A program made the translations under genes and the position numbers. DNA of 64,000 nt from Lentisphaeria bacterium. GTDB taxonomy: Bacteria > Verrucomicrobiota > Lentisphaeria > Victivallales > UBA1829. The notes beneath the pieces were generated by a model. It searched no databases. It was not told the DNA's origin and saw only the letters and a program-made list of their open reading frames with translations. The stretch lies in the NCBI GenBank assembly GCA_017629515.1, contig JAGBXB010000053.1:1-64000 (forward strand). The letters are read 5' to 3'. Position 1 is the first letter of the stretch. Every line of letters begins with the position of its first letter. This document shows positions 33,803-49,073 of this stretch, in pieces.

Positions 33803-35896
33803 TCACATATTGGGGTAACGGCAGAGAGATTTGCGGTAGGCAGGCATGGTTTTATTGCGCAACGCATCCAGCTGATTGAGTTTCCACCGGATATGATCGG
33901 CATCCCCTACATATTCCATACGCGGTTCCCAACCAAGACGGGAATCTTTTTCCGCCACAGGCAAAGCCCGCATGGCATTGGCATACTCATTTTCCACGAT
34001 CTTTTCCAATTCATCCATAATGGCATGCCCTTTATCAAAATCCGCCTCCACTTCCAGACGCATATTGTTCACCCACCATCTCTTTGTATTATACATGGTA
34101 CGGATGGCACAACCGAAGAAGATAGCTACTCCCAATTCCTTTTCTGCAAAATCCCGTTTATCCGCAGGCACTTTATCCAGAGCCTTTTCCATAATGGAAA
34201 GACCTTCTTCATAAACTTTCAAAGCCCCTTCCAGCAAACGGATATCTTCCTGCATCCTCAAACCGCAATGGGCGGAATTATACAATACTTCCGGCATATA
34301 CAATTCATTGACGACCGCAGGAGAAAAGTGGGAGTGTTCCGGGAAAGGTATATGCAAAAAGCGTTCACAATGCGGATGCAGAACAGGACGGAACAATAAA
34401 GGATAGGCAGGGCCGTTACGCAGAGGGCCTGTCTGATCGTCGAAGCCGGGGATGTAAGAATCCACCGCATCACTCCATTTCTGCCATGCTTTCATCACAT
34501 CCTCTGCCGCATCTTTCCCGTAATCCTTTACTGCAATACGCTGCAGGATCTCAATGGGGTCACTTTCCGGATCAAGGAAATAGTGTCTGGCACATTCAGA
34601 GATCATACAGGGATGCCAGCCGAAGTGGTGGGATTCCATAAGACCGCACAAGCCCTGATTTTTTCCGCTTTCCACCATGGCACGGAATCTTTTCACCCAC
34701 TGCATGGGAGCGGGAATATAAGGCACGATCCCGCTGTCCCAGGTTCGTCCACCGGTATTTGTCATGGCATAAAGGGGAAGTTTCCGTTTGGAGGCTTCAT
34801 CCGCTTCTGTGGCAAAATATTTTCCGGGGCCGGGGAAGGTGATGGTATAATCCGGCACATACGCCTGATGATTGGGGAATTTATCCGGCAGGACTTCATA
34901 CATCTCGAATGTGGCAAGAAGCGAAACATCCTGCGGCATATTCTGAATAAGTTCCCTGCGGTATTTTTCAGGCTGTCTGCCCCAGTTGTAAGACCAGAAG
35001 ACGATATCGGCATCGGGAGTATATTTCCGCACAGCATTCTTTACCCCGTTCAGCCATTTGGGATAATCCGTACAGGGCCACCATCCGCTGGCGGGTCTGT
35101 GATCGTCGGGAGAGCGTTCCCCTTTTTTTGCGGGACATGCAAGGGGGTCTTTTGTGGGGAAACAGGCAGATTCCCCGACAATGACCAATCCTTTCGCACC
35201 GGGGCAATCTTTGAATACACTGCCGAAATTCCGGTCAAAAAGTTGTTCTGCATTGGGAGCATCCGGATCGATCCAGGAATCCAGATAACTGTAAAAATAT
35301 ACTTTGATACCGTATTTTTCCGCACGGTAGACAAGTTCATTGAAATCCATATGCCCGAAAGTAGTTTTGGAAGGCCCTTTCACATAGACAAGGATAGCAT
35401 CGTATCCGGCATGGACGATAGCGTTCAAATGGGAATCCGGATACTGGTCAAGTCCCCAGGCAGAGTGTACCATACGGGGGGAGAACATATCTTTTTTCGT
35501 TGTTTCCCCTTTTTTCACATAAGGAGCTTTACGGAAACGCATGGCATCTTCCAAATAAATAACTCCTCTGCGGGTATTGCCTTTTATGGTGATTTTATTT
35601 TCTTCTGCAATAATGGTAAATTCTTTTGCTTCTTTCACCTCTTCCAGAAGAAAATATTTCCCCTCCACCGGCAGAACAGATGCTGTAAGAAGGTGCATGG
35701 AAAAACTGCTTCTGAAAAAGTCTTCCAGATCGTTTGCCGCACTGCCCTGACCGAATCCGTCTTTTGTAACGATTTTCCAGGAATCGTCAACAGCGGTCTC
35801 GTCGGTATTTTTCACTGTCTGCGGATCAAATGAGATCACATCATGCACTTTGTCCAGAGCAGCACGGAATTCATAATTTTTTTCAATTTTCAGCAT
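33803..35896 (-). CDS. Glycoside hydrolase-like protein (hexosaminidase/GH20-like architecture)
   Basis: A 697-aa protein with no signal peptide, so likely cytoplasmic. The first 130 residues resemble the N-terminal alpha/beta domain that precedes GH20/GH67-type barrels, ending in NTRRGVIYLEDAMRFRKAP. A TIM-barrel-like region follows (FSPRMVHSAWGLDQYPD, GYDAILVYVKG, YGIKVYFYSYLDSW, ADIVFWSYNWGRQPE, GLCGLMESHHFGWHP), then a helical C-terminal region. Candidate acidic residues exist (for example in VIVGESACF and GLMESHH), but the catalytic pair cannot be assigned. It is 11 bases downstream of a DUF4838 gene; both probably work on the same intracellular glycoside or uronide. Confidence 0.65.
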   Translation of the reverse strand: MLKIEKNYEFRAALDKVHDVISFDPQTVKNTDETAVDDSWKIVTKDGFGQGSAANDLEDFFRSSFSMHLLTASVLPVEGKYFLLEEVKEAKEFTIIAEENKITIKGNTRRGVIYLEDAMRFRKAPYVKKGETTKKDMFSPRMVHSAWGLDQYPDSHLNAIVHAGYDAILVYVKGPSKTTFGHMDFNELVYRAEKYGIKVYFYSYLDSWIDPDAPNAEQLFDRNFGSVFKDCPGAKGLVIVGESACFPTKDPLACPAKKGERSPDDHRPASGWWPCTDYPKWLNGVKNAVRKYTPDADIVFWSYNWGRQPEKYRRELIQNMPQDVSLLATFEMYEVLPDKFPNHQAYVPDYTITFPGPGKYFATEADEASKRKLPLYAMTNTGGRTWDSGIVPYIPAPMQWVKRFRAMVESGKNQGLCGLMESHHFGWHPCMISECARHYFLDPESDPIEILQRIAVKDYGKDAAEDVMKAWQKWSDAVDSYIPGFDDQTGPLRNGPAYPLLFRPVLHPHCERFLHIPFPEHSHFSPAVVNELYMPEVLYNSAHCGLRMQEDIRLLEGALKVYEEGLSIMEKALDKVPADKRDFAEKELGVAIFFGCAIRTMYNTKRWWVNNMRLEVEADFDKGHAIMDELEKIVENEYANAMRALPVAEKDSRLGWEPRMEYVGDADHIRWKLNQLDALRNKTMPAYRKSLCRYPNM

Positions 35897-35907
35897 AAGA
35901 AAATTCC

Positions 35908-37668
35908 TTATATTTGTTTACGGAAAAAATTACTTTCTTCATGTTTGCGGATATATTCATCTTCCCAGTCAAAATTAAAATGCAGCCACGGAAAACCTTT
36001 TTCCAATGCTTCATGCAGCGCCGGGAAATACATATCGAATTTATCCTGAACAAAAACTCTTGTATCTTTGTATGTATGGATCCAGCTGACAAATCCATCC
36101 ACATCCTGTTTTGTCAACTTTCCTGCGTGATATGTATCAAAAAGTTCTTTGAAACGGATAAGGTATTGCGTCCAGATGACAAGTTCTTTTCTCATGGTGT
36201 CGGCAGGGGATTTTTGAAGAAGTTCTTCTGCAAGGATATTCAATTCTTTCAAAGATGCCGTTTTTACTCTTTTGAGGAAAGAATAAGGATAAGGGATATG
36301 ACACTCGCCCAGAGCAAGAAGTGTTTCTTTTACTTTCTGCCAGAAGTTTTTTGCCGCGGAAGCATCTTTCCCGTACAGCATTTCAAAAAGCATGGCAATG
36401 GATTCCTCTTTATTCTCCCCTCTGGCGGCTCTCCCCATAAGAAAGTAATTCTTTCCGTAAACCGTCCAATGGGGAATATGGAACTGGGTCAGGATGCCGT
36501 CTATACCGTGGGCATTATACCAGGAAATATCCCGGAACATCTCTTCAAAATGCACCATCGGCAATGAAAGGTAAAAGTTTACCCCCATGTAATACTCATA
36601 AATATTGATCTCGCCGCCGTTTTTGGCTTTCTGCCACTTTTTCAGATCATCGGCATAACAGGAATTGACGGGACAATCCTCATCCCCGATGGAATGATTG
36701 ATACAATGCCAGTAGGGTGCCATGTGCACACTTGTCCCCTTATTGAGTTTGAATCCCTCTGCGGGGGCACTGTAATTCACGTAGGCGACAAAGGTAAGAG
36801 AAATATCCGGTCTTGCTTTATGCAGTTGAGCGGAAATATCAACAATCAGATCGTGGTAGATCTTATCTGCCTTATACACATGGTGGGAAAGGTTATAGTA
36901 TTCCCCTTTTTTTTCCTTATCATAAAATTTACTGCATTGGGGACACTCGCACCAGCCGAAACCATCATTGGGGACAAGGGAGATGACCTTGACTTCCGGA
37001 TGTGCATCACAATAAGCAAGCATATTTTTCACGATCTCCGCGCGTAATTCCTTATTGGTGGTGCAGAGTTGTTCACTCATAAGAAGATCAGAATCCTTTT
37101 CGGACGGAGTGATCCTTTTTCCATTTATCATAGCGAAAAAGTGGGGATGGGTCTTACCGTATTTCCTGCCGGGGATCCAGTAATCAAAATTGTGATGACC
37201 GCTTTCAATGACAATACCACGAACTCTTGCATATTCTTTCAATTCGCTGGAAAGATGATCGTAATATTTCATCCATACAAGCAGGTAGTTAAGTTTATTT
37301 TTCGCCATGTGGTCAAAGAGCATTTCTGTTTCATCATTGAAAGGAAATTCCTGGATGAAACCCCGTCTTTTCAGTTGTACGGGACGGGCGGGTACGAAGA
37401 TACCGTCAGGAAGATCCTTTTTTACTCTTGTTGCATCGAATCTGTCCCTGCCGGGTTCAAAGAAAGAGTATCCGCCGGCTCTTTCCGCAAGATCATAAAC
37501 ACCGTAGAGAAGTTCAATACTGTTTGGTGCGGCAATGATAAATATGCCTTTTTCCACTCTGATCTCAAAGGAAACAAGCGTTTCTTCGATCTTCAAAACA
37601 GCATCAAGAGCATAATGTTTCAACTCTTTTTCCGCAAGGAGAAATGTTGCATCTTTCCTTATATCCAT
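35908..37668 (-). CDS. DUF4838-family glycosidase-like protein
   Basis: A 586-aa protein matching the DUF4838 family. The N-terminal alpha-glucuronidase-like domain ends with LLYGVYDLAERAGGYSFFEP. The core has the family signature SLVPNDGFGWCECPQCSKFY near residue 240, with its Cys-x-Cys-x-x-Cys cluster, then FVAYVNYSAP and PYWHCINHS. A carbohydrate-active role is suggested by family and neighbours, not shown. No signal peptide is present. It follows the cation diffusion facilitator gene by 17 bases and precedes the GH-like gene, forming a three-gene operon. Confidence 0.75.
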   Translation of the reverse strand: MDIRKDATFLLAEKELKHYALDAVLKIEETLVSFEIRVEKGIFIIAAPNSIELLYGVYDLAERAGGYSFFEPGRDRFDATRVKKDLPDGIFVPARPVQLKRRGFIQEFPFNDETEMLFDHMAKNKLNYLLVWMKYYDHLSSELKEYARVRGIVIESGHHNFDYWIPGRKYGKTHPHFFAMINGKRITPSEKDSDLLMSEQLCTTNKELRAEIVKNMLAYCDAHPEVKVISLVPNDGFGWCECPQCSKFYDKEKKGEYYNLSHHVYKADKIYHDLIVDISAQLHKARPDISLTFVAYVNYSAPAEGFKLNKGTSVHMAPYWHCINHSIGDEDCPVNSCYADDLKKWQKAKNGGEINIYEYYMGVNFYLSLPMVHFEEMFRDISWYNAHGIDGILTQFHIPHWTVYGKNYFLMGRAARGENKEESIAMLFEMLYGKDASAAKNFWQKVKETLLALGECHIPYPYSFLKRVKTASLKELNILAEELLQKSPADTMRKELVIWTQYLIRFKELFDTYHAGKLTKQDVDGFVSWIHTYKDTRVFVQDKFDMYFPALHEALEKGFPWLHFNFDWEDEYIRKHEESNFFRKQI

Positions 37669-38864: not shown

Positions 38865-38893
38865 AAAAAAAATCCCTTAATTAAATTAAGGGA
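38865..38893 (-). promoter_or_regulatory. Hairpin and T tract abutting the CDF start codon, enclosing its ribosome site
   Basis: On the minus strand TCCCTTAAT pairs with ATTAAGGGA (9 bp, 3-base loop) and is followed by eight T and then the ATG. AAGGGA, the only ribosome-site candidate, is in the stem. The same hairpin would terminate transcription of the upstream six-gene operon that ends at 38964. It may thus serve as terminator, translational lock, or both. Confidence 0.6.
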
Positions 38894-38895
38894 TA

Positions 38896-38963: not shown

Positions 38964-39266
38964 TCAGATTTCCAGATTTCCCAGGGGAAAATGCTGCTGA
39001 CTTCCGTACACATCGGAATCAAGAAGAGAGCCGGAAGAACACTTCCGGGGCAATACAACTTTGATGGTCAAAATCTGTTCAAAAGTCTTTATGCAAATTT
39101 TTTCAGAGTCAGTCCGGTATAATTTTCCAATATTTTCCACAGTAAAAGCGGGACTTTTCAAGACCTGTTCATAGGTTTGCAAGTCTTTGAACATCAAATC
39201 CACTGTCACCTGGAACGGTCCGGCATTTTTGCTTCTGCACACAAAAGCAATATCGTATAATCTCAT
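38964..39266 (-). CDS. DUF4387-family protein (AtuA partner)
   Basis: A 100-aa protein matching DUF4387: the N-terminal LYDIAFVCRSKNAGPFQVTV, TFEQILTIKVVLPR, and the C-terminal DVYGSQQHFPL. Members of this family are nearly always encoded next to, or fused with, AtuA-type proteins, as here, where its start overlaps the AtuA stop by four bases. Its biochemical role is unknown; it is probably a small subunit of the AtuA complex. It is the last gene of the six-gene operon. Confidence 0.85.
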   Translation of the reverse strand: MRLYDIAFVCRSKNAGPFQVTVDLMFKDLQTYEQVLKSPAFTVENIGKLYRTDSEKICIKTFEQILTIKVVLPRKCSSGSLLDSDVYGSQQHFPLGNLEI

Positions 39267-40621
39267 ATTATGACCTCCTTTACTTCAAATTCCAGAGGAA
39301 GATCCGTCAGGTGATACAACGCAAATTCATATACCGCACCACCGGAAAAATCCGAGGGGGAAAAGGGAAATGCCAGATTTCCAGCCGTTGCTTTTCTATC
39401 CGGGAACCCCTGATGCAATGCCTTGGAACGGGCAAGCCCCACAAGTGCATCCGCTTTCTCCTGCGTGGAAGCCACTGCCTCAATGACAAGACCGACTTCT
39501 CTGGGAAGAACAGGATTTTCCTTTTCATTATCTCCGGTAACTGCATCCAGCCCGTAACGGAGGAAACGCAGAGAATATTCCCCTTCTTTCACAAAGTTGG
39601 CAGACTGCGCCACGGAAGCGCGTACCCCTTCTTCGATCTCTTTAAGGTGACGGATCCCGGAAGGATCACGCAAACCGGCAATGGTGATGGCACGGTATCC
39701 GGCAAGGAACGCCCCTTCCAGTTTGGTGGTCTCCTTTTCCGCCGGGACAAGATGACTTCCTTTCACCAATACTTTTCTTTCCCCGATCTGTTCAAAAGTA
39801 CATCCGGAAAGATCGATTTTCCCTTCCGGTTCGTAGAAGCAGTTGGGGTCGGGCTGTTCATAAAGAGAGTGTGCCGCAACGGAATCCGGCGTACAGGTTC
39901 TTGCAGGATTGGGCGGTTCAACGGTAAAATGATCTTCATACATTTCCACCATAAGAGAATCATTCGCCCCCACCGGTCTGGCGCACAATGCTCCACATTC
40001 CGCAATCTTTGCCGCATGGAGCGCAAGGCCCGGATCAAAACCTTTCCAGATGGGATAGGAGGCAAAGACTGCTGTATCACAGCATCTGCCGGCAAGGATG
40101 ATGTCAAATTTCTTTTCCAATGCTTCAATGATAGGCGCAGTCCCGAACTGGGCAACAGCGTTGGTAAGAGAGTCCGCCATTGCCGGATCAAAATCAGGAG
40201 AGCCTCCGCAGGAAAAGAGGTGGCCATTGGCGGCTTTCTTTACAAATCCCTCCGGAAGATCCGAATAGATAACTGCAATACGGAAAGAAAGATCCTGTTC
40301 CTTTGCGATCTCTTTAATGATTTCCAGAGTTCCGTTCACATGGGGGGCAGCCCCTGCCCCGCCGGAAGAACCGATGATAAGGGGGATATTTCTTTTTCTG
40401 ATTACCGGAAGAATAAGGGAAAGATCCCTTTTCACCTGCAAATTCTTTACAAAATTTTTTCCGCTGCCCAGATAATAGGGCCCCGGATCGGTACTGCCCG
40501 CATCCACGCCCACAAAATCCAGCTCTTCTTTCAGCGCATTTTCCAGACTTTCCAGAGCATATCCATACCCCAGAAGTCCGCAAAGGGAAAGATAGCGGAG
40601 CATCTTTTTCTCACTGCTCAT
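39263..40621 (-). CDS. AtuA-family protein (DUF1446, acyclic terpene utilisation-like)
   Basis: A 452-aa protein of the AtuA/DUF1446 family. Seen: the N-terminal GYGYALESLENAL, VDAGSTDPGPYYLGSG, IIGSSGGAGAAPHVNGTL, DIILAGRCCDTAVFASYPI, and the acidic/aromatic block ENDSLM-like region GANDSLMVEMYEDHF. The family was named from citronellol catabolism, but its reaction is not established; many members sit in unrelated acid-degradation clusters. It overlaps the hydratase beta-subunit gene and DUF4387 by four bases each. Confidence 0.85.
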   Translation of the reverse strand: MSSEKKMLRYLSLCGLLGYGYALESLENALKEELDFVGVDAGSTDPGPYYLGSGKNFVKNLQVKRDLSLILPVIRKRNIPLIIGSSGGAGAAPHVNGTLEIIKEIAKEQDLSFRIAVIYSDLPEGFVKKAANGHLFSCGGSPDFDPAMADSLTNAVAQFGTAPIIEALEKKFDIILAGRCCDTAVFASYPIWKGFDPGLALHAAKIAECGALCARPVGANDSLMVEMYEDHFTVEPPNPARTCTPDSVAAHSLYEQPDPNCFYEPEGKIDLSGCTFEQIGERKVLVKGSHLVPAEKETTKLEGAFLAGYRAITIAGLRDPSGIRHLKEIEEGVRASVAQSANFVKEGEYSLRFLRYGLDAVTGDNEKENPVLPREVGLVIEAVASTQEKADALVGLARSKALHQGFPDRKATAGNLAFPFSPSDFSGGAVYEFALYHLTDLPLEFEVKEVII

Positions 40622-41256
40622 TTTGCATTGACCTCCGTATAATCATACCCGGCAGGGATCCCCAGATCTTTTTCGATTTCCGGCATTTTGCTTTCCGCTT
40701 CTTTTGCCAGATCTTCAAAGTAATTATTTCCTTCCGAATCCATTGCCACAAAGAAAGGTCCGAAGTGATCCACTTCATAGATCCAGGTACATTCCGTCTT
40801 TCCCAGTTCGTCAAGGAAATATACATCATGCACCTTTTTCACCTGATCTTTCAGGGCATTACCGCTTAAACCGATCTTGGAAAGGTAAATGCCGCCGACT
40901 TCTTTCAAAGCCTGTGCAGTAGCGGGGCCCATGGTGGTTTTGCCGATAAGGGTACGCAATTTGAACTTCCGCACCACATCCGCCCCGTAACGCTCAAAAC
41001 GGATACTGCTGGTCGGTTCGCAGCTTACCACTTTCCACTCTCCATCCTCCTCCTGACGCATCACAGGCCCCACATGGAAGAAACAGTTGATCTTTTCATA
41101 GTCGATGGGAGGATATATATTGTCCTCAATGGCACGGATGTGCAAACGGCTCCGTCCTGTAAAAAGCAGTCCGCTTACCGTTATCATTTCTCCAAGTTTC
41201 AGACTTTTCACATCTTCTTCCGTCATCGGAAGTTTAATATCTCTTATTTCCGCCAT
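40618..41256 (-). CDS. Class I fumarase-type hydratase, beta subunit (FumA C-terminal / TtdB-like)
   Basis: A 212-aa subunit that, with the alpha subunit encoded three bases upstream, should form a 4Fe-4S-dependent hydro-lyase of the class I fumarase / L-tartrate dehydratase / mesaconase type. Seen: ITVSGLLFTGRSRLH near residue 27, FFHVGPVM, GKTTMGPATAQALKEVGG, and the end segment FFVAMDSEGNNYFEDL. Which 2-hydroxyacid it handles cannot be read from the sequence. The next gene (AtuA) overlaps by four bases. Confidence 0.9.
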   Translation of the reverse strand: MAEIRDIKLPMTEEDVKSLKLGEMITVSGLLFTGRSRLHIRAIEDNIYPPIDYEKINCFFHVGPVMRQEEDGEWKVVSCEPTSSIRFERYGADVVRKFKLRTLIGKTTMGPATAQALKEVGGIYLSKIGLSGNALKDQVKKVHDVYFLDELGKTECTWIYEVDHFGPFFVAMDSEGNNYFEDLAKEAESKMPEIEKDLGIPAGYDYTEVNAK

Positions 41257-41259
41257 TTT

Positions 41260-42162
41260 TTACTCCATTTCCCCTGTATAATCAATATTGCCGTTTCCGT
41301 CGATCTTTGCGATCCATCTTCTGCCAACCATACACTGGGCATTCACCGCAACCGGCAATGCCGCAGTATGGGTAACAGCCACATCCACATTCACGGCAAG
41401 AACCGCATTGATCCCCCGGGAACCCATAGGTCCGATACCAAGTTTCCGGCTTGCTTCATAAAGTTCCTTTTCCAGTCTTGCCGCTTCCGGATCAGTGTGT
41501 TTTTTGCCGATGGGACGCAAAAGAGCCGCTTTCTTTGCCATACTCATACACAAATCCGCCGTTCCGCCGATCCCTACGCCAATAATGGCAGGAGGACATA
41601 CTTTTCCGGCATAACAGGCATCTTTGATGCACTCAATAACAAATTTCTTGATCCCGGCTTCCCCGTCAGCAGGGAACATCATACGGTAGAAAGTTCCGAA
41701 GATCTCACTTCCGCCGCCTTTGGGAGCGGCAAGGATCTCAAGGGAATCATCATCCCGGTCAAAAACAACTTCGATTTTGGGCATCCCGGGGCCTACATTG
41801 TTCCCGGGATTTTTTCTGGTGAGAGGGTGTACCATTGTAGGACGCAGGAAACATTCGGCAGTAGCTCTTGCGGTGGCTTCTTCCGCACACTCTTTCAGGA
41901 TCCCGAAACCGCCTTCCAGTTGTGTTTTTGCCCCGGCATGGATAAAATACATGGGGAATCCGGTATCGGCACAGACAAGGCCATTGCCTTTTTCCGACAT
42001 ATCGGCATTCTGTAAACTTACTTCCAGATGTTTTACCGCCATGGGATCGGTTTCTTCTTTCAACGCATTCTGCAATGCTCTCCGGATATCCGGGGGCATT
42101 TTTGTTGCTCCAAGCCGGATGGCATTATACATTGCCTCAACGATCGTTTCACGCCTGATCAT
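41260..42162 (-). CDS. Class I fumarase-type hydratase, alpha subunit (FumA N-terminal / TtdA-like)
   Basis: A 300-aa iron-sulfur subunit. The three cluster cysteines can be placed in VCADTGFPMYF (about residue 83), in KDACYAGKVCPPAIIGVGIGG, and in GGTADLCMSMAKKAAL. It is typical length for a two-subunit class I fumarase, tartrate dehydratase or mesaconate hydratase. ATG 42162 has AGGAGG about nine bases upstream and overlaps the end of the amidohydrolase gene by 14 bases. Oxygen-sensitive hydratases of this type suit an anaerobe. Confidence 0.9.
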   Translation of the reverse strand: MIRRETIVEAMYNAIRLGATKMPPDIRRALQNALKEETDPMAVKHLEVSLQNADMSEKGNGLVCADTGFPMYFIHAGAKTQLEGGFGILKECAEEATARATAECFLRPTMVHPLTRKNPGNNVGPGMPKIEVVFDRDDDSLEILAAPKGGGSEIFGTFYRMMFPADGEAGIKKFVIECIKDACYAGKVCPPAIIGVGIGGTADLCMSMAKKAALLRPIGKKHTDPEAARLEKELYEASRKLGIGPMGSRGINAVLAVNVDVAVTHTAALPVAVNAQCMVGRRWIAKIDGNGNIDYTGEME

Positions 42163-43462
42163 ACTTGAATTCCTCCTTTGAACTCATTTTTTCTTTATAT
42201 TCGAGATAGGTTTCTTTATTCATTACCGGTGTTTCCGCAGCTATTTCCCTGCCTTTTTCCGCCCCCTCCCCAAGGAGTACAACTACATCCATGGCAAGAA
42301 GTTTTGCTCCCTCCACATAGGCAAGAACCGGATCTTCCACAATAAAATCCGCTCCGTGGGGAGAACCGGCAAAACCGCCGCTGTAAGCATGCAGTGCTGG
42401 CAAAAGCATACTTACATCCCCCATATCCGTGGATGACCCTCTGTGACCGAAATTCCCCAGCACTTTGCCGGAAAGTTCCATAAGGTTATCCCCGTGCAGC
42501 TTATTGAGGTTCTCACTGCTCTTATAAGGCATATACCCACTGAGATTATGGATGGTGACATTGCCGCAAAATGCCATTGCCGCAGCTTTCACGCACCGGT
42601 CAACTACTTTACAGGCATTTGCCACAGCTTCCGGTGTTTTTGCCCGGATCTGCAATTCCAGAACCGCTTTGGCAGGCACAACATTTACCGCATTTCCGCC
42701 ATCGGAAATAATACCGTGGATACGCACGGAATCTTTATCATCAAAGGTATCCCGCTGGGCGTCGATCATATTCAAAGCCTGTCTTGCCATTGCAGCAGCA
42801 TTTTTTCCTGCCCAGGGACGTAATCCTCCGTGAGCGGCTTTCCCCTCAAAAATGATCTCTTTCATGCAGAAGCCGTTATAACTTTCCGGCGTGAATGTAT
42901 CGTGACCGGCATGGATGAGAAGCACCATATCGATATCATCCAGAACCCCCAGACGGATAAATTCCGGTTTACCGCCGCAATAACGGATCTTTTCTTCCGC
43001 CATCAACTTTCTGCAATAATCCAATGCCTGAAATTCCTCCGCAGGAACAGCAATAAAAGAGAGAGAACCGCTCAACTCTTTTACAACAGGGACAAGGGCA
43101 TCCGCCGCCGCAAGCATCTGGGTAAGCTGGGCATGATGTCCGCAGGCGTGTGCCGCCCCGGTAGTTTTATCGGCAAAGGGGTGACTCGGCACAGGTAAAG
43201 CATCCAGTTCCCCCATCAAAGCGATGTGAGGCCCTTCTCCGTTCCCGCAGGCGATATCTGCTCTTATACCGGTAACAGCAAGCCCGGTACGGCAGACGAG
43301 TCCCAGTTTTTCCAGTTCTTCTTTGACTTTGGCAGCAGTTTTAACTTCACAATATCCCAATTCCGGCATATGGAGAAGTGTATTTCCCAGAGCAATGATC
43401 TCCTCTTTTCTGCTTTCGATACGGTCAATGACAATTTTTTTCAATTCCGCAATGCTTTTCAT
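42149..43462 (-). CDS. M20-family amidohydrolase (AbgB/aminoacylase-like)
   Basis: A 437-aa metal-dependent amidohydrolase of the M20D group, which cleaves N-acyl or aminobenzoyl amino acids. Seen: HMPELGYCEVKTA, the metal-binding stretch ALMGELDALPVPSHPFAD and AHACGHHAQLTQML (near residues 108-118), the catalytic Glu in VPAEEF, and the dimerisation-domain motif GKAAHGG. The unusual length and the STDMGDVS metal-ligand region resemble AbgB. In this operon it could deacylate the product of the racemase upstream. Confidence 0.88.
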   Translation of the reverse strand: MKSIAELKKIVIDRIESRKEEIIALGNTLLHMPELGYCEVKTAAKVKEELEKLGLVCRTGLAVTGIRADIACGNGEGPHIALMGELDALPVPSHPFADKTTGAAHACGHHAQLTQMLAAADALVPVVKELSGSLSFIAVPAEEFQALDYCRKLMAEEKIRYCGGKPEFIRLGVLDDIDMVLLIHAGHDTFTPESYNGFCMKEIIFEGKAAHGGLRPWAGKNAAAMARQALNMIDAQRDTFDDKDSVRIHGIISDGGNAVNVVPAKAVLELQIRAKTPEAVANACKVVDRCVKAAAMAFCGNVTIHNLSGYMPYKSSENLNKLHGDNLMELSGKVLGNFGHRGSSTDMGDVSMLLPALHAYSGGFAGSPHGADFIVEDPVLAYVEGAKLLAMDVVVLLGEGAEKGREIAAETPVMNKETYLEYKEKMSSKEEFKYDQA

Positions 43463-44565
43463 GCAAAAACCGCCTCTTCCTGTTTATATTTATTCAATAC
43501 TTCCTCATTGGCGACCACATCCAGTCCGGGATTCTCCCGCAAAGTATAAGTACCATATTGTTCTGTCAGAAGAACGGGAGTACCCAGATTTTCCACATAG
43601 AACTTTTCCGCAGGGGAAATATCCGAGGGATAATTCACAAAAGGAAGTGTGGCAAGGTTTGCCACCACATTTGTCCCCAGGGAGGATTCCCCCATACCGC
43701 CCAGCCAGCAGCCGATATTCTTTTCCCCGCAGAGATTATGGATATCCAGTGTTGGGGTGATCCCGCCCACCCTGCCGTATTTGATATTGATATATTTACA
43801 TGCGCCGATCTCGATAGCCTGTCTGGCATCCTGTAAAGAACAGATACTTTCATCCAGACAGATGGGAGTACCGATCATCTTCTGCAATTTTGCATGGTCA
43901 AGGATGTCATCATGCATCAAAGGCTGTTCGATCATGGCAAGATTGTATTTATCCAGTTTTTTCAGCATATCGATATCATTAAGAGTATAGGCACTGTTGC
44001 AGTCGATATGAAAAACCGTATCCGGATAGACACTGCGGACTGCTTCCAGCATATCGCACTCCCAGGAAGGACAGAATTTGAGTTTGATGCGGGGATACCC
44101 CAATTTCAGCATCTTATCGATCCCGGCAATAAGATCATCAAAGGTTTTCAATACCCCGAAACAGTACCCGACTTCCGCCTTTTCTTTTGTTCCGCCGATG
44201 GCTTTTTTAAAGGAAATCCCCTGTTTTCTGCTCAAAAGATCCCAGAAGGCTACGTCAAAAGCGGCTTTGGCAAATTCATTGCCCCGGATGGGAGCCATGA
44301 TTTTCTGCAACTCCTGCGGAGTAGAGATCTCCTTATGCAGAATGGATGGCACAATAAAATCTTTCCCCAGAAGGAAACAGCCCTTATCCCAATAGGGAGA
44401 AAAAGCCGGACACCCCCAGGGACAGGATTCCCCCCAGCCCACCAATCCGCCGGATTCCATTTTCACCACAATGGAATTAAAAGCATTCTGTGTTCCGAAA
44501 GCGGTGGTGTAGGGATTCTTGATGGGATTGCAAACCCGGTACATGGTAATACGGTCGATTCTCAT
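43459..44565 (-). CDS. Enolase-superfamily enzyme, N-succinylamino acid racemase / o-succinylbenzoate synthase subgroup
   Basis: A 368-aa enzyme with capping domain and barrel. Catalytic residues can be placed: KLK at 161-163, metal ligands Asp188 (HIDCN), Glu213 (IEQP) and Asp238 (LDES), and the second-base Lys262 (NIKYGRVGG), followed by WLGGMGESSLGTN. These correspond closely to the known NSAR/OSBS numbering (Lys163, Asp189, Glu214, Asp239, Lys263 in the Amycolatopsis enzyme). No menaquinone genes are near, so N-acylamino acid racemase activity is more likely than MenC. It is the first gene of the operon; AAGGAG lies upstream of ATG 44565. Confidence 0.85.
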   Translation of the reverse strand: MRIDRITMYRVCNPIKNPYTTAFGTQNAFNSIVVKMESGGLVGWGESCPWGCPAFSPYWDKGCFLLGKDFIVPSILHKEISTPQELQKIMAPIRGNEFAKAAFDVAFWDLLSRKQGISFKKAIGGTKEKAEVGYCFGVLKTFDDLIAGIDKMLKLGYPRIKLKFCPSWECDMLEAVRSVYPDTVFHIDCNSAYTLNDIDMLKKLDKYNLAMIEQPLMHDDILDHAKLQKMIGTPICLDESICSLQDARQAIEIGACKYINIKYGRVGGITPTLDIHNLCGEKNIGCWLGGMGESSLGTNVVANLATLPFVNYPSDISPAEKFYVENLGTPVLLTEQYGTYTLRENPGLDVVANEEVLNKYKQEEAVFA

Positions 44566-44607: not shown

Positions 44608-44635
44608 AATATATTTTTTTATTTGATTTTTTCAA
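44608..44635 (-). promoter_or_regulatory. Predicted promoter of the six-gene operon
   Basis: Minus strand TTGAAA (44635-44630), 16-bp spacer, TATATT (44613-44608), about 40 bp before the racemase start. The LysR-type palindrome sits upstream, centred near -63. Confidence 0.6.
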
Positions 44636-44651: not shown

Positions 44652-44653
44652 TA

Positions 44654-44674
44654 TTGATACTCTTTTTATATCAA
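44654..44674. promoter_or_regulatory. LysR-type operator palindrome
   Basis: TTGATA-N9-TATCAA is a perfect palindrome containing a T-N11-A core (44658 and 44670), as LysR-family regulators recognise. It lies about 63 bp upstream of the predicted operon start, the usual place of the primary binding site. Confidence 0.65.
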
Positions 44675-44693
44675 TACAGGAAATAAAAAAACA

Positions 44694-45578
44694 ATGGAAC
44701 TTACACATTTACGGTATTTTCTTACAGTGGCGGAGCTTCTTCATTTCCGGAAAGCAGCGGAAAAACTCAATATGACCCAGGCTCCGTTAAGTTTTGCAAT
44801 AAAAAAACTGGAAGAGGAACTGGAAACAAAACTTTTTGAACGGACCAGCAGATCGGTCAAACTTACCAAAGAAGGGGAATTTTTTCAAAATGAGGCAAAA
44901 TGTATCCTTGCCCGTGCGGATGAAGCCGTTTTAAGATTGAAAAAAATGCGTACAGAAGCTCTTTCCCATATTTCCATAGGGTATAATGAACCCTCTTTAA
45001 ATTCTTTTCTTCCCGATTTTCTTGCAAAGTGCAGGAAAGGTACGAAACTGTTTTTCCCCGGAATGCAGGAACTGGAAACAAGTCAGCAGCTTTCCCTTTT
45101 GCGTTCCGGAAAACTGGATATAGGATTTATGCGGCCCTACGGCTTTGATCTGACAGGATTGAAGAGCCGGCTTGTTTTCCGTGAAAAATATGTTCTTGTG
45201 ATGCCCTCCACCCATAAACTTGCAGGAAAGGAAAAAATATCAAAGGAAGATCTTTCCCTTGAAAATATTATTTTATTTGCAAAAGAAGTCAATCCAGTTC
45301 TTTATGACCGACTGACCGCATTTCTTGCAACAGATTCTTTACCTCCGCCCGTATTCCGTCAGGATGCAAGGAACAAAAGCAGTATGCTTGCCCTTGTGGA
45401 GGCTGGTTTCGGTTCGGCACTTCTCCCCGCATCCACCTTGAAAGAAGATCACCACTCTTTCCTTGTGAAAAAAGATCTTGCCTTTCCTCTGCCGCCGGTG
45501 GATATTTTTGCGGTCTGGGATGAAAAAAATCCCTCCATGCTTCTGCCCAAATTATTGAAACTGCTTCCGGAGGTGTAA
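44694..45578 (+). CDS. LysR-family transcriptional regulator
   Basis: A 294-aa regulator. The winged helix-turn-helix is at residues 1-60 (MELTHLRYFLTVAELLHFRKA, MTQAPLSFAIKKLEEEL, LFERTSRSVKLTKEG). The effector-binding domain follows (ISIGYNEPSL-type first strand, then LDIGFMRPYG). It is divergent from the racemase-hydratase operon and shares a 128-bp control region with it, so it is predicted to activate that operon in response to a pathway acid or N-acyl compound. An N-terminal half like BenM/CatR-type regulators fits the role. Confidence 0.93.
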   Translation: MELTHLRYFLTVAELLHFRKAAEKLNMTQAPLSFAIKKLEEELETKLFERTSRSVKLTKEGEFFQNEAKCILARADEAVLRLKKMRTEALSHISIGYNEPSLNSFLPDFLAKCRKGTKLFFPGMQELETSQQLSLLRSGKLDIGFMRPYGFDLTGLKSRLVFREKYVLVMPSTHKLAGKEKISKEDLSLENIILFAKEVNPVLYDRLTAFLATDSLPPPVFRQDARNKSSMLALVEAGFGSALLPASTLKEDHHSFLVKKDLAFPLPPVDIFAVWDEKNPSMLLPKLLKLLPEV

Positions 45579-48098: not shown

Positions 48099-49073
48099 AT
48101 GAATGTTTATAAGATCGTAAAAAAGACATTTCTGCCAGCCGGATTGGTTCTTGCAGTTCTTCTTGCCTGCATCGTTCCGGAATTCGGTATCAAAATGAAA
48201 AGTACCATTGATCAGAATATATTTATCGTTATTGTTTTTGTTGTCTGCGGCATACAGACAAGTCTTTCCGATCTGCATATTACGAAAAAATCCCTTTTCT
48301 TTCTTGTCTGCGGCGGTATTCTGACATTATTTCTGTGTCCCCTTTTTGCCTGGGGGATCACTCTTCTGCTGGGACTTGCTTCCTTACAGGCGGCGGGTCT
48401 TATTGTTGCAGCAGCGGCTCCCCCCACTCTTTCCAGCGGGATCGTTATGACGGAAACAGCCGGCGGAAATCATGTTACTGCCATTGCCATAACCATGCTT
48501 TACAATCTTGCGGCAGTATTCACCATTCCGGTCGTTCTTGCTTTCGCCATTGCCTCGGATGCGGGGATCAATACCAATCCCTGGAACATGCTGAAAAAAC
48601 TTTTTCTCCTTGTTGTTCTCCCCTTTGCTGCTGGATTTGTATTCAAAACTCTCATCAGAATGAAAAAAAGTCCCTCCTGGCTTTCCTTTGTCTCCTCCTT
48701 TGCGGTCATTGCACTTATTCTTTTCTTTTTTTCCGCATCCAGTGATAAAATGAAAGCGATTTCCGCAATGGTGCTTCTGAAAGGATTTATTGCTTCCATC
48801 ATCATCCATTTTGCCTGTATGGCATCTTTCTGGTACGGGGCAAAGGCTCTGAAACTGCCTGTGGAAGAGTGCAAAGCCTATCTTTTTACAGCAGCTTCCA
48901 AAACTCTGACCATAGCCTTGACCACTCTTGCCATTATCGGCGCAGGGGATGGGGATGCTGTTGCCCCCTGTATCATCTTCTACTTTTTCCAGATGATCTT
49001 TGATAGTTTCCTTGCGGCGAAAATGGGTCTTTCCGGTAAAGAAAATCCTGCGGAACAGACAGCAAAGGGATAA
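48099..49073 (+). CDS. Bile acid:sodium symporter (BASS/SBF-like) family transporter
   Basis: A 324-aa inner-membrane protein with about ten hydrophobic helices. The SBF-like pattern is visible: a first half with VVCGIQTSLSDL, the crossover region AAAAPPTLSSGIVMTETAGGN (rich in Pro, Ser and Thr, equivalent to the sodium-site motif), and the second crossover ASKTLTIALTTLAI. Members carry pantoate, pyruvate, arsenite or bile acids; substrate is not predictable. It is followed by a radical SAM gene after nine bases. Confidence 0.85.
   Translation: MNVYKIVKKTFLPAGLVLAVLLACIVPEFGIKMKSTIDQNIFIVIVFVVCGIQTSLSDLHITKKSLFFLVCGGILTLFLCPLFAWGITLLLGLASLQAAGLIVAAAAPPTLSSGIVMTETAGGNHVTAIAITMLYNLAAVFTIPVVLAFAIASDAGINTNPWNMLKKLFLLVVLPFAAGFVFKTLIRMKKSPSWLSFVSSFAVIALILFFFSASSDKMKAISAMVLLKGFIASIIIHFACMASFWYGAKALKLPVEECKAYLFTAASKTLTIALTTLAIIGAGDGDAVAPCIIFYFFQMIFDSFLAAKMGLSGKENPAEQTAKG

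What the first reader, a model, noticed from the sequence alone, without database searches (positions are those of the whole stretch)
38964..44565. Six-gene coupled operon: NSAR/OSBS-type racemase, M20 amidohydrolase, fumarase-type hydratase, AtuA and DUF4387
Genes overlap by 4, 14 and 4 bases or abut within 3, so they look co-translated. The racemase keeps all catalytic residues of the NSAR/OSBS group (K161/K163, D188, E213, D238, K262). NSAR with an M20 deacylase is a known logic for N-acyl amino acids; a class I hydratase plus AtuA/DUF4387 added to it is a combination I cannot assign. It may degrade an N-acylated or dicarboxylic acid substrate such as an N-succinyl, N-fumaroyl or mesaconyl-type compound. 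No biochemical role is established for AtuA/DUF4387 here.
Basis: partly seen in the sequence, partly recalled or inferred. Interest (0 to 1): 0.78.

Follow-up and report, generated by a model that had tools for sequence, protein, structure and literature searches.

The report
Gut bacterium's amide-acid breakdown operon
Six tightly packed genes in a ruminant-gut Lentisphaeria bacterium form a real, conserved operon that probably frees a branched dicarboxylic acid from an amide, adds water to it and splits it into acetate and a keto acid; the two "unknown function" genes are relatives of a solved citramalate lyase, but altered active sites suggest the true substrate is a different acid that nobody has identified.

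Summary
In detail: six minus-strand genes at 38964-44565, overlapping by 4, 14, 4 and 4 bases or separated by 3, with a divergent LysR gene, a terminator-like hairpin after the last gene and a LysR-box/promoter arrangement also seen in relatives. AtuA and DUF4387 do have an assigned role: they match both chains of PDB 9erq/9evf, named citramalate lyase CmlA/CmlB (E 3e-104 and 3e-18), and their relatives sit next to methylaspartate ammonia-lyase in glutamate-fermentation clusters of several phyla. The operon therefore reads: N-acylamino-acid racemase, M20 amidohydrolase, two-subunit [4Fe-4S] hydratase, two-subunit citramalate-lyase-type enzyme. The set recurs in at least nine genomes of four families, in two gene orders; many relatives carry only LysR, hydratase and lyase. 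The window's hydratase and lyase form clades apart from the glutamate-pathway enzymes. The hydratase keeps the catalytic residues but replaces a substrate-pocket Gln and several neighbours that are invariant in fumarases, mesaconases and tartrate dehydratases. Glutamate mutase, methylaspartate ammonia-lyase and menD were not found in the 82%-complete genome. Best reading: deacylation of an N-acyl amino acid, then hydration and cleavage of a 2-substituted fumarate to acetate and a 2-oxoacid. Substrate unknown; plain mesaconate possible, not favoured.

The parts
43459..44565 (-). N-acyl/N-succinylamino-acid racemase-like enzyme (NSAR/OSBS group of the enolase superfamily), first gene
   Evidence: Pfam MR_MLE_N/C; NCBIfam menC_lowGC_arch 277 bits, cut-off 201; best PDB matches 1wue, 2zc8, 1wuf, 1sja; catalytic Lys/metal residues invariant
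42149..43462 (-). M20 amidohydrolase (M20D-like; CGHH, AEE, HAGHD and SPHGADF motifs)
   Evidence: PF01546/PF07687; TIGR01891 over cut-off; nearest PDB match HmrA 3ram; alignment A2
41260..42162 (-). Class I [4Fe-4S] hydratase alpha subunit; CADTG instead of CQDTG at residues 64-68
   Evidence: PF05681 250 bits; PDB 7xky_A E 2e-61; residue comparison
40618..41256 (-). Class I hydratase beta subunit; GRSRxH, EPTSSIRF and GKTT motifs in place of GRDxAH, GPTTxxRM and GKG
   Evidence: PF05683 98 bits; PDB 7xky_B; residue comparison
39263..40621 (-). Citramalate-lyase-type large subunit (CmlA / AtuA / DUF1446)
   Evidence: PF07287; PDB 9erq_A/9evf 'citramalate lyase subunit A', E 3.3e-104 over residues 8-441
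38964..39266 (-). Citramalate-lyase-type small subunit (CmlB / DUF4387)
   Evidence: PF14330 105 bits; PDB 9erq_B 'citramalate lyase subunit B', E 3e-18
44694..45578 (+). Divergent LysR-type regulator of the operon
   Evidence: PF03466/PF00126; divergent LysR kept next to the operon in relatives with and without the racemase/M20 genes
44652..44676 (.). LysR-type operator: perfect inverted repeat TATTGATA-N9-TATCAATA
   Evidence: similar boxes upstream of the operon in L034, L035, L036, L038 and L059, degenerate forms in others
44608..44635 (-). Promoter-like TTGAAA-N16-TATATT just downstream of the LysR box; block TTGAAAAAATCAAAT conserved in relatives
   Evidence: (consensus match only), conservation
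38872..38894 (-). Terminator-like hairpin followed by T7, between DUF4387 and the CDF transporter gene
   Evidence: consensus match only

Best explanation
A LysR-controlled catabolic operon. The racemase makes both enantiomers of an N-acyl amino acid available. The M20 enzyme hydrolyses the amide. The two-subunit [4Fe-4S] hydratase adds water to a 2-substituted fumarate released by that step (or derived from it), giving a 2-substituted malate. The CmlA/CmlB-type lyase splits that malate into acetate and a 2-oxoacid. Shown by sequence: family membership of all six proteins, conserved catalytic residues, operon structure and conservation. Inferred: reaction order, direction and substrate. The hydratase and lyase belong to a subfamily distinct from the glutamate-pathway mesaconase and citramalate lyase; their changed pocket residues suggest that the substituent is not simply methyl.
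For: Lyase identity: (PDB 9erq/9evf chains named citramalate lyase CmlA/CmlB). The 9erq sequence is 92% identical to the DUF1446 protein of an E. coli glutamate-mutase/MAL/mesaconase cluster. CmlAB next to MAL recurs in Prevotella, the window's own phylum, Bacillota and Planctomycetota. Hydratase plus lyase as one unit: FumAB-CmlAB is the stable core, with or without racemase/M20. Racemase and M20 linkage: two gene orders; racemases paired with M20 form one clade; in the phylum sample 10 of 11 genomes with this racemase type also have the class-2 lyase (hypergeometric 2.5e-12, relatedness ignored). The eleventh (G267) has the class-2 hydratase. NSAR-M20 pairs recur elsewhere: Leisingera with TRAP uptake genes, Cytobacillus, and Lysinibacillus with a GNAT. 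Distinct pocket: class-2 clades in both trees; Gln134 (L. major numbering; active-site list in PMC10602362) becomes Ala/Gly, and Asp, Gly, Ala and Gly neighbours are replaced in the beta subunit; 12 class-switch positions in CmlA, 9 of them in two short stretches. No glutamate mutase or MAL in the window genome; a separate class II fumarase is present, so FumAB is not the only fumarase. Shared LysR box and promoter block in operons with and without racemase/M20.
Against: No substrate has been identified, and I found no biochemistry for this subfamily. Many class-2 operons lack the racemase and M20, so these may serve a side branch. The M20 family is too broad to predict an acyl group. The Gln-to-Ala change also occurs in other uncharacterised class I hydratases (Pseudomonas MPC6, Cupriavidus), so it marks 'not a typical fumarase' rather than a particular substrate. 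The paper behind 9erq/9evf is not in the library, so the lyase name rests on the PDB record plus gene context.
Confidence: 0.55

Rival explanations
1. Ordinary mesaconate/citramalate utilisation with an amide-release front end: racemase and M20 free mesaconate from N-mesaconyl (or similar) amino acids, FumAB is a mesaconase and CmlAB a true citramalate lyase giving pyruvate and acetate.
For: Homology to the citramalate lyase CmlAB and to mesaconase-type hydratases; canonical clusters use the same hydratase-lyase sequence; an N-mesaconyl group resembles the N-succinyl group that NSAR enzymes accept.
Against: Class-2 hydratase and lyase form clades apart from the mesaconase/citramalate-lyase clades, with systematic changes at pocket positions. 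G368 carries both systems side by side. N-mesaconyl amino acids are not known to me as common natural compounds.
Confidence: 0.22
2. Tricarboxylate version: FumAB hydrates trans-aconitate (common in forage) to citrate and CmlAB acts as a citrate lyase without an acyl-carrier subunit, giving oxaloacetate and acetate; racemase and M20 release the acid from conjugates.
For: Hosts of the named relatives are ruminant and deer gut bacteria; trans-aconitate fermentation via citrate is known in Acidaminococcus (PMC3035267); the class-2 beta subunit gains invariant R37 and K127, which could hold a third carboxylate.
Against: The gain of E80 in the beta subunit and of E264/E266 in CmlA is not explained; no tricarboxylate transporter was recognised among the neighbours scanned; a purely residue-based guess.
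Confidence: 0.1
3. The racemase homologue is really an eliminase: like methylaspartate ammonia-lyase in the canonical cluster, this enolase-superfamily enzyme eliminates a group beta to a carboxylate and so creates the unsaturated acid itself; M20 acts on the by-product or a precursor.
For: It occupies the logical place of MAL (also enolase superfamily) upstream of hydratase and lyase; OSBS, its closest relative, catalyses a syn elimination with the same lysine pair (own knowledge).
Against: It carries the NSAR/OSBS Lys pair and matches MAAL_C only below cut-off; NSAR homologues pair with M20 deacylases elsewhere without any hydratase.
Confidence: 0.08
4. The operon is a loose assembly: LysR-FumAB-CmlAB handles one acid, while NSAR-M20 independently salvages N-acyl amino acids and shares only the promoter.
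For: The core occurs without NSAR-M20 in many genomes, and NSAR-M20 occurs apart from the core in G192 and G267.
Against: Those two genomes still carry the class-2 hydratase; in L057 and L056 the pair is inserted between the two hydratase subunit genes; paired racemases are one clade.
Confidence: 0.05

Closest known systems
Methylaspartate pathway of glutamate fermentation (GlmES-MAL-mesaconase-citramalate lyase CmlAB)
   Same: Class I hydratase followed by CmlA/CmlB-type lyase, LysR in some clusters, enolase-superfamily enzyme upstream
   Different: No glutamate mutase and no MAL in the window genome; racemase and M20 instead; hydratase and lyase in separate clades with changed pocket residues
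NSAR + N-succinyl/N-acyl amino acid hydrolase pairs (Geobacillus from own knowledge; here Cytobacillus, Lysinibacillus, Leisingera)
   Same: NSAR/OSBS-type racemase next to an M20 deacylase
   Different: No GNAT acyltransferase in the operon; coupled to hydratase and lyase; GGMGESS instead of GGM[FLI]E[SAT]G in the C-terminal active-site loop
Two-subunit class I fumarase / mesaconase / L(+)-tartrate dehydratase
   Same: Fe-S cysteines, Asp135, Arg173, His334, Arg421, Thr467, Arg471 and Lys491 equivalents retained
   Different: Gln134 to Ala/Gly, Thr468 to Ser, neighbouring Asp to Ser, Gly to Glu, Ala to Phe/Leu and Gly to Thr; scores below the NCBIfam fumarase and tartrate equivalog cut-offs
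Citramalate lyase CmlAB (PDB 9erq/9evf)
   Same: Two-subunit AtuA + DUF4387 enzyme, 43% identity of CmlA over 434 residues
   Different: Separate clade (SH-aLRT 100); 12 class-switch positions

Membership tests
NSAR/OSBS subfamily (enolase superfamily) | KxK + second Lys catalytic pair and D/E/D metal ligands | tested here: met
   K161/K163, D188, E213, D238, K262 invariant
NSAR/OSBS subfamily (enolase superfamily) | Sequence in the NSAR/OSBS group rather than dipeptide epimerase, MLE or MAL | tested here: met
   TIGR01928 over cut-off, best PDB hits are NSAR/OSBS
Functional MenC (OSBS for menaquinone) | Other men genes in the genome | tested here: not met
   menD below cut-off in 11 genomes; window genome 82% complete, G321 has split sub-cut-off fragments; other men genes not searched
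M20D amidohydrolase | M20 fold with Cys/His/Glu metal motifs | tested here: met
   PF01546, PF07687, TIGR01891 over cut-off; motifs conserved in A2, except Glu143 to Lys in L035
Class I Fe-S hydratase | Three cluster cysteines and catalytic residues | tested here: met
   C64, C189, C277, D66, R107, H265 in alpha; R35, T82, R86, K106 in beta
Mesaconase / fumarase / tartrate dehydratase proper | CQDTG and GPTT pocket motifs shared by the enzymes of known or context-assigned function compared here | tested here: not met
   CADTG/CGDTG and EPTSS in all class-2 members
Citramalate lyase CmlAB | AtuA-type A subunit and DUF4387 B subunit, adjacent genes | tested here: met
Citramalate lyase CmlAB | Falls in the clade of MAL-linked enzymes | tested here: not met
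   separate clade, SH-aLRT 100
Citramalate lyase CmlAB | Cleaves citramalate to pyruvate and acetate | not testable with these tools
   needs enzyme assay
Methylaspartate glutamate-fermentation pathway | Glutamate mutase and MAL present | tested here: not met
   absent from the window genome

The most novel reading that the evidence does not exclude
An undescribed catabolic pathway in gut and environmental Lentisphaerota/Planctomycetota. A new specificity of the class I Fe-S hydratase and a new specificity of the CmlAB lyase act in sequence on an unknown 2-substituted (possibly charged or amino-bearing) fumarate/malate, released from an N-acyl amino acid by a dedicated racemase/M20 pair or, in relatives, perhaps by other hydrolases.
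Probability: 0.45. Interest if true: 0.75.

Novelty: new variant of a known kind. Interest (0 to 1): 0.55.

Why it matters
It gives two 'unknown function' families (AtuA, DUF4387) a concrete reaction type in this operon. It also points to an unknown metabolite that ruminant-gut Lentisphaeria appear to harvest. The clean split between the glutamate-pathway clades and this clade, with a short list of changed residues in both hydratase and lyase, makes the specificity question directly testable with two enzyme assays. It also warns against labelling every AtuA/DUF4387 pair citramalate lyase, or every racemase of this type menC.

Tried and rejected
Papers on AtuA with citramalate lyase, on DUF4387 and on 9ERQ/9EVF: none relevant held. 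The L. major fumarase papers are not held; the active-site list was taken second-hand from PMC10602362. A search of the window genome for DUF993 told nothing. Arg265 as a racemase-versus-OSBS marker was dropped, because it is also present in 1wue and 1wuf. Housekeeping fumarase rejected: a full class II fumarase lies elsewhere in the genome. MenC rejected. The CDF transporter gene downstream is not counted as part: a terminator-like hairpin intervenes and it is next to the operon only in the same genus. Class 2 outside the window's phylum: none among 399 genomes of one Bacillota phylum (best 545 bits against 801 for L044), and only L044's own genome among 343 of its phylum. The claim that the Gln-to-Ala change is unique to this clade was dropped. 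Structure prediction was not run, since coordinates would not have been available for docking.
Full report
Observation. Overlaps are 4 (racemase/M20), 14 (M20/hydratase alpha), 4 (hydratase beta/AtuA) and 4 (AtuA/DUF4387) bases, with 3 bases between the hydratase subunits. A LysR gene is divergent at 44694-45578. The 128-base gap between them holds a perfect inverted repeat TATTGATA-N9-TATCAATA and, just downstream, a TTGAAA-N16-TATATT promoter-like site. The operon ends at a hairpin followed by T7 at 38894-38872. Pfam assigns DUF4387, AtuA, Fumerase_C, Fumerase, M20 and MR_MLE, all above cut-off.

What AtuA/DUF4387 are. The AtuA protein matches PDB 9erq_A/9evf, 'citramalate lyase, subunit A (cmlA)', at E 3.3e-104 over nearly its whole length. 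DUF4387 matches chain B, 'subunit B (cmlB)', at E 3e-18. The solved protein is 92% identical to the DUF1446 protein of an E. coli plasmid cluster: methylaspartate mutase S, glutamate mutase L, mutase E, methylaspartate ammonia-lyase (MAL), DUF1446, DUF4387, symporter, class I fumarase, cobalamin adenosyltransferase, LysR. That is the methylaspartate pathway. A 2015 paper noted the DUF1446 gene and wrote that the fate of citramalate was unclear (PMC4682846). The same arrangement appears in Prevotella, in nine genomes of the window's own phylum and in many Bacillota and Planctomycetota. Structure name and context agree that the canonical pair is a citramalate lyase. The primary paper is not in the library, so this rests on the PDB record plus context.

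The window's operon is a second type. In the same phylum, CmlAB occurs in two settings. Type 1 is the glutamate cluster. Type 2 (called class 2 above), which includes the window, is LysR / FumA-FumB-CmlA-CmlB, never beside MAL or glutamate mutase in the loci examined. A tree of 82 CmlA sequences puts type 2 in one clade, SH-aLRT 100, apart from the MAL-linked clade. The alpha-subunit tree gives the same split. One genome (G368) carries both types. In a sample of 388 genomes of the phylum, 34 have DUF4387; 25 of these are type 2.

Racemase and M20. At least nine genomes carry all six genes (window, L032, L034-L038, L056 and L057; in L056 the M20 and racemase frames are incomplete). Two more (L033, L039) are cut by contig ends. 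In L057 and L056 the order is FumA-M20-NSAR-FumB-CmlA-CmlB (FumA seen in L057), so the pair sits inside the hydratase genes. In L078 an M20 relative is convergent with the core. In many others, LysR is directly beside FumA. The promoter block with the LysR box is recognisable in both situations, though the box is degenerate in several FumA-headed operons; this suggests the same kind of inducer. A search of 376 genomes for the racemase, with neighbourhoods, shows that racemases paired with this M20 form one clade (99). G192 has racemase-M20, class-2 hydratase and class-2 lyase at three separate places; G267 has racemase-M20 and class-2 hydratase at two places. Ten of eleven genomes with this racemase type have the type-2 lyase (hypergeometric 2.5e-12, which ignores relatedness). 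NSAR-M20 pairs without hydratase and lyase were seen in Leisingera (with TRAP genes), Cytobacillus and Lysinibacillus (with a GNAT). No GNAT lies among the operon genes, which fits breakdown rather than D-to-L inversion; this is inference.

Not MenC, not the glutamate pathway, not the only fumarase. menD never reaches its cut-off in eleven genomes with the racemase (G321 may hold a split copy). Glutamate mutase E and MAL are absent from the window genome and from eight others, and present only in G368 and G267 in their own clusters. The window genome has a class II fumarase over cut-off and a single class I hydratase, the one in the operon. The genome is 82% complete, so absences are provisional.

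Active sites. The L. major fumarase active site is Cys133, Gln134, Asp135, Arg173, Gly216, Cys252, Cys346, Arg421, Thr467, Thr468, Arg471, Lys491 and His334 (PMC10602362). The window enzyme keeps the cysteines, Asp, the three Arg, Thr467, Lys491 and His334. Gln134 becomes Ala (Gly in L057, L059 and G267) and Thr468 becomes Ser. Next to these, type-2 beta subunits replace residues invariant, or nearly so, in the fumarase, tartrate dehydratase and mesaconase sequences compared: GRDxAH to GRSR[FL]H, GPTT to EPTS, GKG to GKT. New invariant charges are R37, E80 and K127. In CmlA, 83 positions are conserved in both types and 12 switch; nine of the twelve lie in residues 204-219 and 256-266, beside conserved His, Glu and Asp residues. 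The racemase clade mostly has GGMGESS where the solved NSAR/OSBS proteins have GGM[FLI]E[SAT]G (L117 reads GAMCESA). These facts fit working enzymes with a substrate other than fumarate and probably other than mesaconate. A limit: other uncharacterised class I hydratases (Pseudomonas MPC6, Cupriavidus) also have CADTG, so this change does not name a substrate.

Other hydrolases beside type-2 cores. L044 has an esterase-like gene directly upstream and a sodium:solute symporter directly downstream. L057 has an acetyl-xylan-esterase-like gene upstream. L079 and L080 have a beta-lactamase-family hydrolase next to CmlB. L059 has a protein with a weak ceramidase match between CmlA and CmlB, and L244 has its relative beside FumAB. 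This loosely supports release of the acid from esters or amides, but these are single cases.

Mechanism and confidence. Hydratase-then-lyase as a sequence: about 0.8. Deacylation feeding it: about 0.55. Substrate other than mesaconate: about 0.6. The lyase products would be acetate and a 2-oxoacid by analogy with citramalate cleavage. Trans-aconitate to citrate is one named possibility, given the gut hosts and the extra basic residues, but it is a guess.

Verdict. A real and conserved operon. The 'unknown' pair is of citramalate-lyase type. The whole is a variant of a known hydratase-lyase module coupled to a known racemase-deacylase module, with signs of a new specificity. Nothing here has been tested biochemically.

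Noticed in passing
L059 951-2234 (G365) and L244 6736-8034 (G267): Two 45%-identical proteins with a weak match to neutral ceramidase sit inside or next to class-2 hydratase/lyase operons; in L059 the gene lies between CmlA and CmlB.
   Followed up: partly
L060 8155-10152 (G290): AtuA and DUF4387 appear fused in one long reading frame (681 aa open frame at the DUF4387 match).
   Followed up: no
L256 1883-8222 (Pseudomonas sp. MPC6 plasmid) and L257: Another uncharacterised class I hydratase with CADTG, in Pseudomonas in an operon with succinate-dehydrogenase-like subunits and a methylmalonate-semialdehyde dehydrogenase.
   Followed up: partly
L194, L204, L206, L202, L205, L214, L203, L212: Further AtuA-DUF4387 subfamilies in Bacillota without glutamate mutase or MAL nearby, with recurring unknown neighbours; function open.
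   Followed up: no
L035 5988-7289 (G014): M20 protein has Lys where relatives have the second Glu of the AEE motif, expected to bind metal.
   Followed up: no
G321 C281:50-757 and C271:20676-21065: Two sub-cut-off menD fragments, one at a contig edge, may be one split menD gene; this relative may make menaquinone.
   Followed up: no
window 33803-37668: Two large minus-strand proteins downstream of the operon (one with DUF4838), probably glycoside-processing, not part of the operon.
   Followed up: no
window 48099-49073: Bile-acid:sodium-symporter-family (BASS) protein about 3.5 kb from the operon; a relative lies near the operon in L042.
   Followed up: no
L044 3443-8368: In the Planctomycetes operon a LacI regulator, a 2-hydroxyacid dehydrogenase, two Amidohydro_2 proteins and an esterase precede FumAB-CmlAB; possible clue to the substrate.
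   Followed up: partly
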